A stretch of 64,000 bases of DNA from Streptomyces spinosus (GTDB lineage: Bacteria > Actinomycetota > Actinomycetes > Streptomycetales > Streptomycetaceae), in assembly GCF_020400655.1 (NCBI RefSeq), contig NZ_JAINRC010000020.1, forward strand, positions 62,001-126,000, written 5' to 3'. Below the pieces are notes generated by a model. It saw only the letters and a list, made by a program, of their open reading frames with translations, did no database searches and was not told the origin of the DNA. The position numbers and the translations under genes are program-made. Of the stretch, positions 11,177 to 50,690 are shown piece by piece; position 1 is the stretch's first letter, and each line of letters begins with the position of its first letter.

Positions 11177-13953
<2,777 letters not shown>

Positions 13954-13982
13954 CCCTTCGCGCCGCCTGGAGGACCGGTTTC

Positions 13983-14144
13983 AGGGTCTTTCGTTTGGAT
14001 CATGCCGGGCTCGCGGGCCCTGGCACCGCGCCTCGCCGCGTTGTCGTCGGTTGCCATGGCTCCGCCATGGCGCCCTCCTCCGCCTTGCGATGCACGGCAC
14101 CAGACCCCGCTCCCTGATCCGGCCTGATCCAAACGAAAGACCCT
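13983..14144. repeat. Palindromic dispersed element, copy 1 (162 bp)
   Basis: Perfect 20-bp terminal inverted repeats, AGGGTCTTTCGTTTGGATCA at 13983-14002 and its complement at 14125-14144, enclose about 122 bp. The inside contains GGGCTCGCGGGCCCTGGCACC and a second small palindrome (GCCATGGC-TCC-GCCATGGC). A shorter related copy is at 48663-48753. It resembles a MITE or REP-type element; no transposase gene is present. The right end overlaps the stop codon of the XRE gene. Confidence 0.75.
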
Positions 14145-14997
14145 AGCCGACGGCTTCCGTCGGGGTCATGTCCTGCGTCCCCACCACCCGCAGCAGCTCC
14201 AGCCTCTCGTGCGACTCCGTGCCCGGGCGGGCCGTGTGGATGATCAGGTGGTGGCGGCTGTGGTGGCTCAGCAGGACCTCGCAGTCCAGTTCCAGCAGGC
14301 CCACCACCGGGTGCAGGAAGCGCTTGGTGCCCGGGCGGCGCAGGGACACCTCGTGTTCCTCCCAGAGCCGGGCGAACTCCTCGCTCTCCGCCCGCAGTTC
14401 GGCCACCAGGGCCGCCGGTTCCGGGTCGTCGGGGCGGGCCGCGGCCACCGCGCGGAGGTTGGCCACGTGGTCCCGGGCGTGGGCCGGGTAGTCCTCCGGC
14501 GGGAAGAGCGCGCGAGCCGTGGGATCCAGAAAGAACCGGCGGGTGAGGTTCCGCTCGCGCGGCGGGCGGGTGAGCACGTCCCCGACCAGCGCCTTGGCCA
14601 GCGCGTTCTGCGCCAGCACCGCCCCCAGGTCCGTGACCACCTGCGCCGGTGAGTCGTACAGCCGGTCCAGGACCAGCAGCAGCCCCGGCCGGACGTGCGC
14701 CGAGGCCGCGTCCCGGCGCGGCGGCTCCTCGCCCACCAGGTGGAACAGGTGGTCCCGTTCGTCTTCGGTCAGCCGCAGCGCCCGCGCCAGCGCCGTGAGC
14801 ATCTGACGGGACGGACGCGGGCCCCGGGACTGTTCCAGGCGCGTGTAGTAGTCGACCGACATCCCGGCCAGCGCCGCCACCTCCTCCCGGCGCAGTCCGG
14901 GCGTGCGGCGGCGGGCGCCGGGCGCCAGGCCCACGTCGGACGGTTCCAGACGGGCGCGGCCACGGCGCAGGAAGTCGGCGAGTTCGGCTCGGTTCAC
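14143..14997 (-). CDS. XRE-type helix-turn-helix regulator with MmyB-like ligand-binding domain
   Basis: A 284-residue regulator. The N-terminal HTH (about residues 10-75) contains the actinobacterial signature RRRTPGLRREEVAALAGMS and DYYTRLEQSRG. The rest is an MmyB-like PAS-fold domain (VLAQNALAKALVGD, NLTRRFFLDP, LLELDCEVL) thought to bind small hydrophobic ligands. It is divergent from the SDR gene at 15133 with a 135-nt gap, so that SDR is its likely target. The TAG stop lies inside the end of the palindromic element. Confidence 0.9.
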   Translation of the reverse strand: MNRAELADFLRRGRARLEPSDVGLAPGARRRTPGLRREEVAALAGMSVDYYTRLEQSRGPRPSRQMLTALARALRLTEDERDHLFHLVGEEPPRRDAASAHVRPGLLLVLDRLYDSPAQVVTDLGAVLAQNALAKALVGDVLTRPPRERNLTRRFFLDPTARALFPPEDYPAHARDHVANLRAVAAARPDDPEPAALVAELRAESEEFARLWEEHEVSLRRPGTKRFLHPVVGLLELDCEVLLSHHSRHHLIIHTARPGTESHERLELLRVVGTQDMTPTEAVG

Positions 14998-48662: not shown

Positions 48663-48753
48663 GGGGCCTCTCGTTCGGATCGTTCCGGGCCCGCGGGCCC
48701 TGGCACCGCTCCCTGATCCGGCCTGATCCGGCCTGATCCGGACGAAAGACCCT
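48663..48753. repeat. Palindromic dispersed element, copy 2 (91 bp)
   Basis: Aligns with the element at 13983-14144: shared GCGGGCCCTGGCACC, GCTCCCTGATCCGGCCTGAT and ACGAAAGACCCT. About 80 bp of the middle are absent and the left arm is diverged (GGGGCCTCTCGTTCGGATCG). GGCCTGATCC is repeated in tandem. Its right end provides the TAA stop of the hydrolase gene beyond it. Confidence 0.75.
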
Positions 48754-50690
48754 TAGGCGCCCCCCACCGCCGTCAGCAGGGCGAGCGGTGCGGCGGCGGA
48801 CCGGGCACCCCGCCCGCACGCGTGCGGATACGGCACCGGCGAACCGTGCGGAGCACGCCCGTACCCGGCCAGTACCTCCGGCAACCGGTGCCCGCCCACC
48901 GTCGCCGCGTCGATCAGGGCGTGGGCGACCGTGCGGGCCTCGTCGTGCAGCCCGTACCGCGCCAGGCCCAGCGCGATCAGCGCGTTGTCATGGGGCCAGA
49001 CGGACCCCCGGTGGTGGGACAGCGGGTGGTACGCGGCCTGGCCGGAGGCCAGCGTGCGGACGCCCCAGCCCGAGAAGAAGTCCGGCTCCAGCAGCCGCCG
49101 GCCCACCACCTCGCCGTACTCCTTGTCCAGCAGCCCCGACCACAGCAGGTGCCCGGCGTCGGACGCCAGCGCGTCGATCTGCCGGCCCCGCCCGTCCAGG
49201 GCCAGCGCCGGGAAGGACCGCTCCCGCATCCAGAAGTCCCGCTGGAACCGGTCCCGGAGGTCGGCCGCCGCCTGTTCCAGCAGCGCGGCGTACGTCTCGT
49301 CCCCCCACACCGTCCGCGCCACCCCGGCCGTGCGGCGCAGCGCGTCGTAAGCGTAGCCCTGGGCGCCCGCCGCCATCACCGCGCCGGTGGGCCGGGTGCC
49401 GTCGGCACAGCAGATCGCGCCGGGCGAGTCCTTCCAGTTCTGGTTGGCGAGGCCGCCCTCGTCGGCGCGGTAGACGAGGTAGCCGCGCGAGGTCAGGCCG
49501 CCGTGGTCGAGCATCCAGCCGACGGCGGCCCGGGCGTGCGGTTCCAGGCGCCGGGCCGGCTCCGTGTCCCCCGTCCGCTCGACGTACGCGCCGAGCAGGA
49601 TCAGGAAGAGCGGGGTGGCGTCGACCGAGCCGTAGTAGCGGCCGAACGGCACCTGGCCGAAGTGGGCCAGCTCGCCGTGGCGTACCTCGTGCACGATCTT
49701 GCCGGGCTGGGCGACCGGGGACCCGTCGGTGCCGGTGGCCTGGGTGGCGGCCAGGGCGAGGAGCGTGGCGGCGGCGGAGCGGGGGTGGTACGGCAGCACG
49801 AACAGGGAGGTGAGGAGCGCGTCGCGGCCGAGCAGGGTGAGGAACCAGGGGGCGCCGGCCGCCGGTACGCGCAGGTCCTCGCCGTCCGGCCCGGTGGCCG
49901 GGACCTGGAGCGCCGCCAGATCGGCGAGGCCCCGGGCGCAGGCGGCGGCCAGCTCAGGCCAGCCGGTCGGGAAGGCCACGCCCTCCGTGAAGCGGGCTTC
50001 CTCGGCGAGGAGGTGCTCCTGTACGGCGGCGGGGGCGCGGGGCACGCGCAGGGCGCGCTTCTCGCCGTGCGGGCGGGCGATCACCCGCAGCAGCAGCTCG
50101 GTCGTGCCGTGGGGCGCGAGGCCGAGGGTCCACACCAGGCGGCGGGCGCCGGTGCCGGTCTCCTCCACGGCGTCGGGGGCCGGGTCGGCCGTGATGGTCG
50201 TACAGGACCGCCACTCGGCGCGCCGGTAGGTGAACTCGATGCCGTCCGGCAGGACGTCGCGGGAGCGCAGGGCGCCGGGCTTGGCGTAGGTGCGGTGGTC
50301 GGAGCGGAGCTCGAACTGGTCGGTGAAGTCGGCGTCGACGGTGAGCGCGAGCCGCACGGTGGTGGGCACCGGGCGGTTGCTGGTGACCTTCACGGACTCC
50401 ACGAAGGAGCTGTCCCCGACGGCCTGTTCACGGAAGAGGGTGTACGCCGGGGGCTCCTGCCGGCCGCCGCGCGGGACCAGCACACAGCGGGCCTCGTCCC
50501 CGTCCGTGACCGGTGTGAGCACCTCGGGCACCGCGCCGTCGAGGGTGAGCTGCCAGCGGCTGAGGTGCCGGGCGTCCCGGACGAACAACCCGTCCGGGGA
50601 ACTGCCGCCCCGCACCCCGCTGATGTCGCCACGGTCGCCCACGGCGGCGAAGGTGGCGCCGTGCACGAGCAGATGATGCCGGTCCGTCAT
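48753..50690 (-). CDS. Amylo-alpha-1,6-glucosidase/glycogen debranching-type protein
   Basis: A 645-residue protein with an N-terminal debranching-enzyme beta domain (GDE_N_bis type: FVRDARHLSRWQLTLDG, about residues 35-50) and a C-terminal (alpha/alpha)6 barrel with APWFLTLLGRDALLTSLF and HRGSVWPHDNALIALGLARYG. The catalytic acids lie in such segments in the family. It overlaps the upstream MGH1-like hydrolase gene by ATGA, so both are translated together, and a divergent ROK regulator likely controls both. No signal peptide, so it acts in the cytoplasm. The precise sugar is unknown. Confidence 0.83.
   Translation of the reverse strand: MTDRHHLLVHGATFAAVGDRGDISGVRGGSSPDGLFVRDARHLSRWQLTLDGAVPEVLTPVTDGDEARCVLVPRGGRQEPPAYTLFREQAVGDSSFVESVKVTSNRPVPTTVRLALTVDADFTDQFELRSDHRTYAKPGALRSRDVLPDGIEFTYRRAEWRSCTTITADPAPDAVEETGTGARRLVWTLGLAPHGTTELLLRVIARPHGEKRALRVPRAPAAVQEHLLAEEARFTEGVAFPTGWPELAAACARGLADLAALQVPATGPDGEDLRVPAAGAPWFLTLLGRDALLTSLFVLPYHPRSAAATLLALAATQATGTDGSPVAQPGKIVHEVRHGELAHFGQVPFGRYYGSVDATPLFLILLGAYVERTGDTEPARRLEPHARAAVGWMLDHGGLTSRGYLVYRADEGGLANQNWKDSPGAICCADGTRPTGAVMAAGAQGYAYDALRRTAGVARTVWGDETYAALLEQAAADLRDRFQRDFWMRERSFPALALDGRGRQIDALASDAGHLLWSGLLDKEYGEVVGRRLLEPDFFSGWGVRTLASGQAAYHPLSHHRGSVWPHDNALIALGLARYGLHDEARTVAHALIDAATVGGHRLPEVLAGYGRAPHGSPVPYPHACGRGARSAAAPLALLTAVGGA

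What the first reader, a model, noticed from the sequence alone, without database searches (positions are those of the whole stretch)
13983..14144. Palindromic element with perfect 20-bp inverted ends supplies the stop region of a neighbouring gene
The ends AGGGTCTTTCGTTTGGATCA and complement enclose about 122 bp without coding capacity. The TAG stop of the XRE gene lies in its last bases. A second copy at 48663-48753 also gives the stop codon of its neighbour. This suggests an element that inserts or is preserved at gene 3' ends and may work as a terminator.
Basis: partly seen in the sequence, partly recalled or inferred. Interest (0 to 1): 0.65.

Follow-up and report, generated by a model that had tools for sequence, protein, structure and literature searches.

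The report
Tiny transposon lodged at stop codons
The palindrome is one of about 70 places in this Streptomyces genome holding a short, gene-less jumping element that lands in the rare four-letter site CTAG, and because CTAG so often holds a gene's TAG stop codon, most copies sit exactly on gene ends and leave the stop intact.

Summary
The element is real: 162 bp, 26-bp arms (first 20 perfect). It is one of about 70 places in its 9.17-Mb genome and occurs across Streptomyces. It is a miniature inverted-repeat element (MITE). Its ends (GGGTCTTTCGTTTGGATC) match within one base those of an ~895-bp IS5-family insertion sequence in a relative, and it uses the same target (YTAR, mostly CTAG; TA or CTAG duplicated). 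No IS copy with matching ends was found in this genome.

In 37 of 40 own-genome copies and 63 of 91 copies elsewhere, a gene's stop codon lies at the element's edge, against about 30% of non-coding CTAG sites. But the element does not supply the stop. At three other loci, relatives without the element have the same TAG at the same codon, one with a perfect single CTAG; at the window locus a relative also has that TAG, in a rearranged flank. What is recognised is CTAG: 93 of 105 TAG stops used are C-TAG (33% in background), and the commoner G-TAG is nearly unused.

A terminator role is not supported. Best reading: CTAG-specific insertion, with loss of insertions in genes and promoters. New member of a known kind, with an unusually clear stop-codon niche.

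The parts
13983..14144 (.). Full-length copy of the MITE. If the duplicated target is TA, the element proper is 13984-14143, GGGTC...GACCC
   Evidence: ends compared with about 130 other copies
13983..14008 (+). Left terminal inverted repeat
14119..14144 (-). Right terminal inverted repeat
13981..13984 (.). Left target copy, decayed (TCAG instead of CTAG); this is the side not used as a stop codon
14143..14146 (.). Right target copy CTAG, intact
14143..14145 (-). TAG stop codon of the XRE/MmyB-like gene; TA is target, the last G is the element's terminal base
14143..14997 (-). XRE/MmyB-like transcription regulator gene (HTH_31, MLTR_LBD) that ends at the element
12991..13953 (+). Era-like GTPase gene (MMR_HSR1 + KH_2) converging on the element; its TGA lies 29 bp away
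48663..48753 (.). Second, diverged 91-bp copy of the same family
48753..50690 (-). Neighbour gene (MGH1-like glycoside hydrolase domain) whose TAA stop (48753-48755) overlaps the edge of the second copy

Best explanation
A non-autonomous MITE mobilised in trans by an IS5-family transposase of the kind whose insertion sequences carry the ends GG(NN)TTTCGTTTGGATCA. The transposase cuts the palindromic target YTAR (mainly CTAG); the element goes in as TA|GGG...CCC|TA, so TA (or CTAG; the two cannot be told apart) is repeated on both sides. Because the element begins with G and ends with C, a gene whose stop is TAG in CTAG still reads TAG after insertion, on whichever side it lies. CTAG is about 15-fold depleted in this genome, and what remains sits mostly at stop codons or upstream of genes. 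Insertions into genes and promoters are lost by selection, so the survivors are on stop codons. Shown: the family, shared ends and target, pre-existing stops, the preference for CTAG, decay of the unused target copy. Inferred: mobilisation in trans, and selection as the filter.
For: Copies and spread. Autonomous relatives: IS5-family transposases (NF033580; partial sequences, below the curated cut-off) inside elements with near-identical ends and CTAG on both sides. Multi-copy ISs in four genomes (G058, G089, G134, G064) nearly all lie in CTAG. Empty sites, one with a single CTAG shared by the two flanks. TAG stops used are C-TAG in 93/105 against 39/119 in background; G-TAG, half of all TAG stops, 3/105. 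Used-side TAG intact in 25/31 own copies, unused side 4/31. Stop association: IS copies 14/31 non-coding, youngest MITEs 33/47, most diverged 34/38, CTAG background 72/237.
Against: No transposase with matching ends was found in this genome; its seven IS5-type matches lack these ends. Even at least 300 bp from any start codon copies are at stops more often than CTAG sites are (67/81 vs 40/71, p 6e-4), so simple target availability plus promoter avoidance may not be the whole account. The trend with age is weak (p 0.04). Gene calls come from my own codon-usage caller; copies are not phylogenetically independent; the background stretches were chosen by hand and do not overlap listed copies.
Confidence: 0.85

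Rival explanations
1. Exapted bidirectional transcription terminator or 3' mRNA stabiliser, kept at gene ends because its hairpin is useful.
For: Very stable hairpin; location at gene 3' ends.
Against: No excess between convergent genes (54/98 vs 35/72, p 0.44). Arms of older copies diverge independently: double changes 24 against 24.1 expected in own copies, fewer than expected elsewhere. Full-length IS copies share the target and part of the stop association. Terminator efficiency itself was not tested.
Confidence: 0.08
2. The element creates or supplies stop codons by inserting into coding TA and making TAG, truncating genes.
For: The element's terminal G completes TAG whenever it lands after an in-frame TA.
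Against: The same TAG is present without the element in relatives at four loci: three clean (L112 site: G020, G033, G016; L090 site: G020, G016; L131 site: G020) and the window locus in G020, where the flank is rearranged. Pre-insertion sites are CTAG, which in frame is already a stop.
Confidence: 0.03
3. Insertion is actively directed to stop codons or transcript ends (for example through termination-linked DNA structure) in addition to CTAG.
For: Residual excess at stops away from start codons (67/81 vs 40/71) and in the youngest copies (33/47 vs 72/237).
Against: TGA, the commonest stop, and G-TAG are almost unused. Autonomous IS copies are not significantly enriched over CTAG availability (14/31 vs 72/237, p 0.11). 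Within convergent regions the excess is small (54/60 vs 35/44, from counts).
Confidence: 0.12

Closest known systems
MITEPsy1 of Pseudomonas syringae (PMC3189936)
   Same: 100-bp non-autonomous element with 18-nt inverted repeats, target CTAG or YTAA duplicated on insertion; proposed there to derive from ISPsy2
   Different: Unrelated end sequence and host; no stop-codon association is reported in the passages read
IS5 family, IS427-like insertion sequences (NF033580; IS427 group in PMC3281130; ISMysh01 of Mycobacterium shottsii with CTAG direct repeats, PMC9241763)
   Same: End type and CTAG target shared with the Streptomyces IS copies read here
   Different: The MITE carries no transposase and shares only the ends
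RUP of Streptococcus pneumoniae and Correia/NEMIS of Neisseria (PMC2229807)
   Same: Short, non-coding, dispersed, with inverted repeats; RUP inserts at sites containing TA and is thought to be moved by an IS
   Different: Other end sequences; RUP is linked to IS630-Spn1; RUP is described as intergenic; no stop-codon niche is reported in the passages read
ISLxc2/ISLxx4 (IS481 family) of Leifsonia (PMC2516522)
   Same: A stop codon lies in a duplicated CTAG-containing target (NCTAGN)
   Different: There the target gives the element's own transposase its stop; here the stop belongs to the host gene

Membership tests
MITE | Short, no coding capacity, terminal inverted repeats | tested here: met
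   162 bp or shorter, 26-bp arms, no gene called inside
MITE | Multiple dispersed copies | tested here: met
   About 70 places in G000, some 96-98% identical to the window copy; 30 of 101 genus genomes
MITE | Target-site duplication and empty sites | tested here: met
   CTAG on both sides in young copies; at the L112 site the two flanks of G020 overlap by 4 bp, a single CTAG
MITE | Ends shared with an autonomous element | tested here: met
   L133 IS end GGGGCTTTCGTTTGGATCA, one mismatch; further ISs share TTTCGTTTGGATCA
MITE | Mobilised by that transposase | not testable with these tools
   Needs a transposition assay
IS5 family (IS427-like), non-autonomous derivative | Transposase of the partner is an IS5-family DDE protein | tested here: met
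   NF033580, DUF4096 and DDE_Tnp_1_2 matches on partial proteins, some below the curated cut-off; IS5 family annotation in plasmid records
IS5 family (IS427-like), non-autonomous derivative | Partner with matching ends resident in the same genome | tested here: not met
   Seven IS5-type matches in G000, none with these ends. This is not a defining feature of the family, only of present-day activity
Rfam RNA family / known regulatory RNA | Match at gathering score | tested here: not met
   No match in the window
Intrinsic terminator | Hairpin followed by a run of U | tested here: not met
   The right edge is CCCTAGCCGACGG, no T-run

The most novel reading that the evidence does not exclude
The IS5-type transpososome (or the MITE) favours stop codons themselves beyond CTAG, for instance by coupling insertion to transcription or translation termination, giving a mobile element with an evolved safe harbour at gene ends.
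Probability: 0.12. Interest if true: 0.75.

Novelty: new member of a known kind. Interest (0 to 1): 0.48.

Why it matters
It gives a clear, countable case of how target choice plus purifying selection can place a bacterial mobile element almost exclusively on stop codons without harming the genes. From sampled densities I estimate about 360 unoccupied C-TAG stops in this genome, so copies at stops may occupy roughly a tenth of such sites. It also explains hairpins at many Streptomyces gene ends that could be misread as terminators, and puts a test within reach: whether a stop codon can be a preferred landing site.

Tried and rejected
Rfam (no match) and phage records (no match). A resident parent IS in G000 (none with these ends). 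TA-only target with creation of new stops (rejected by pre-insertion sites and empty sites). Stop codon as the recognised feature (rejected by C-TAG against G-TAG and TGA). Terminator selection (no convergent excess, no arm covariation). G032 at the L112 site gave one long alignment that looked like a shared insertion but holds a different sequence.

Full report
OBSERVATION. The palindrome at 13983-14144 is real. Its arms are 26 nt at 96%, the outer 20 perfect. The core occurs four times in the window and never in shuffles. The fold is 9 sd beyond shuffles. It lies between an Era-like GTPase gene (+, stop TGA 29 bp away) and an XRE/MmyB-like regulator gene (-), whose TAG stop is at 14143-14145. 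The second copy (48663-48753) is a shorter, diverged member; its neighbour's stop overlaps the edge but is TAA.

FAMILY. In the window's genome (9.17 Mb, 94 contigs) the arm pattern gives 81 matches against one for the reversed control, about 70 places. Lengths run from about 44 to 166 bp; several 162-bp copies are 96-98% identical to the window copy, which suggests recent movement. It is present in 30 of 101 genus genomes at one mismatch or less, in 40 Streptomyces plasmid records, in no phage record, and in many named Streptomyces species.

WHAT MOVES IT. Young copies read CT|AGGGTC...GACCCT|AG. In relatives, IS5-family insertion sequences have the same kind of ends and the same target: L133 (G032) is an approximately 895-bp IS with GGGGCTTTCGTTTGGATCA, one mismatch to the MITE end; plasmid ISs annotated as IS5 family transposase read CTAG|GCAGTTTCGTTTGGATCA...TGATCCAAACGAAACTGC|CTAG; and IS copies in G058, G089, G134 and G064 nearly all sit in CTAG, a few in TTAG or other NTAN sites. 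The mixed CTAG/TTAG cases fit a 2-bp TA duplication inside a YTAR palindrome; a 4-bp CTAG duplication cannot be excluded. The seven IS5-type transposase matches in G000 lack these ends, so the present source of transposase is unknown. Mobilisation in trans is inferred.

STOP CODONS. With a codon-usage gene caller written for this (89% of the window coding), 37 of 40 paired copies in G000 and 63 of 91 copies in other Streptomyces have a stop codon at the element edge. Annotated plasmid records agree at two copies: the CDS ends at the element's second base. The control is all CTAG sites. In 864 kb of G000 there are 143, against 2154 expected from base composition. With sites inside copies set aside, stops make up 34 of 120 non-coding sites, and 38 of 117 in the other species' loci. 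Copies are enriched at stops (p 3e-13 and 2e-7).

WHY. Three results point to CTAG as the signal. First, 93 of 105 TAG stops used are C-TAG, while in background only 39 of 119 are, and G-TAG is commonest (61); TGA, 79% of stops, is almost unused. Second, non-stop CTAG sites lie close upstream of start codons (median 82 bp), stop CTAG sites do not (median 518 bp), so insertions elsewhere should often be harmful. Third, the association rises from IS copies (14 of 31 non-coding) through the youngest MITE copies (33/47) to the most diverged (34/38), as selection would do, though the trend is weak (p 0.04). Some excess remains even 300 bp or more from any start (67/81 vs 40/71, p 6e-4); I leave open a modest direct preference or missed genes in the control.

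EMPTY SITES. At the L112 locus the two flanks in G020 overlap by four bases, a single CTAG, and G020, G033 and G016 all have the gene's TAG there without the element. At the L090 locus G020 and G016 read CGCTAGCCCC, again with the TAG in place. At the L131 locus G020 has CCCCTAGGCG, while G016 carries a decayed remnant of the element. At the window locus G020 has TAG at the same XRE codon without the element, though its flank holds a partial duplication of the Era-like gene's 3' end. So the stop was there first. After insertion its TA is target and its G is the element's end base. In G000 copies the TAG on the side used by the gene is intact in 25 of 31 and on the unused side in 4 of 31, which fits codon constraint on one side and free decay on the other.

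TERMINATOR. Copies at stops are between convergent genes no more often than CTAG stops in general (p 0.44), arm changes are not compensatory, and there is no T-run. This does not exclude incidental termination, which was not measured.

KNOWN KINDS. MITEPsy1 (CTAG or YTAA target, PMC3189936) and IS5/IS427-type ISs with CTAG or 2-bp repeats (PMC9241763, PMC3281130) show that the kind is known. ISLxc2/ISLxx4 (PMC2516522) use a CTAG-containing target as the stop codon of their own transposase. I found no paper in the held library on a stop-codon niche of such an element in Streptomyces; absence there is weak evidence of novelty.

LIMITS. Gene calls are mine, not annotation. The sample from other species is limited to exact matches of one arm and dominated by a few genomes. 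Copies within a genome are related. Background stretches were chosen by hand and do not overlap listed copies. For copies a stop of any kind within a few bases of the edge was counted, for CTAG sites only an exact TAG.

Noticed in passing
G000, 864 kb sampled: CTAG is about 15-fold rarer than base composition predicts (143 found, 2154 expected). The cause was not examined.
   Followed up: partly
L177 (G020), near 1227-1600: The 3' end of the Era-like gene is partly duplicated downstream and abuts the XRE gene's stop in this relative.
   Followed up: no
L134, L140-L142, L144, L147, L148, L150, L155: A sister group of elements with ends GGGTCTGTCGTTTGGATC (mostly 160-250 bp) in other Streptomyces, also next to CTAG.
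   Followed up: no
L409-L411, L423-L430: IS5-type matches with unrelated ends (CTAGGAGCTGTCTTCAAATG and similar) also sit in CTAG, so this target is shared beyond one end type.
   Followed up: partly
G028, many contig ends: Many arm matches lie 40-60 bp from contig ends, as if long or many near-identical copies broke the assembly.
   Followed up: no
window 48717-48740: The second copy carries GCCTGATCCG tandem units at its right end.
   Followed up: no
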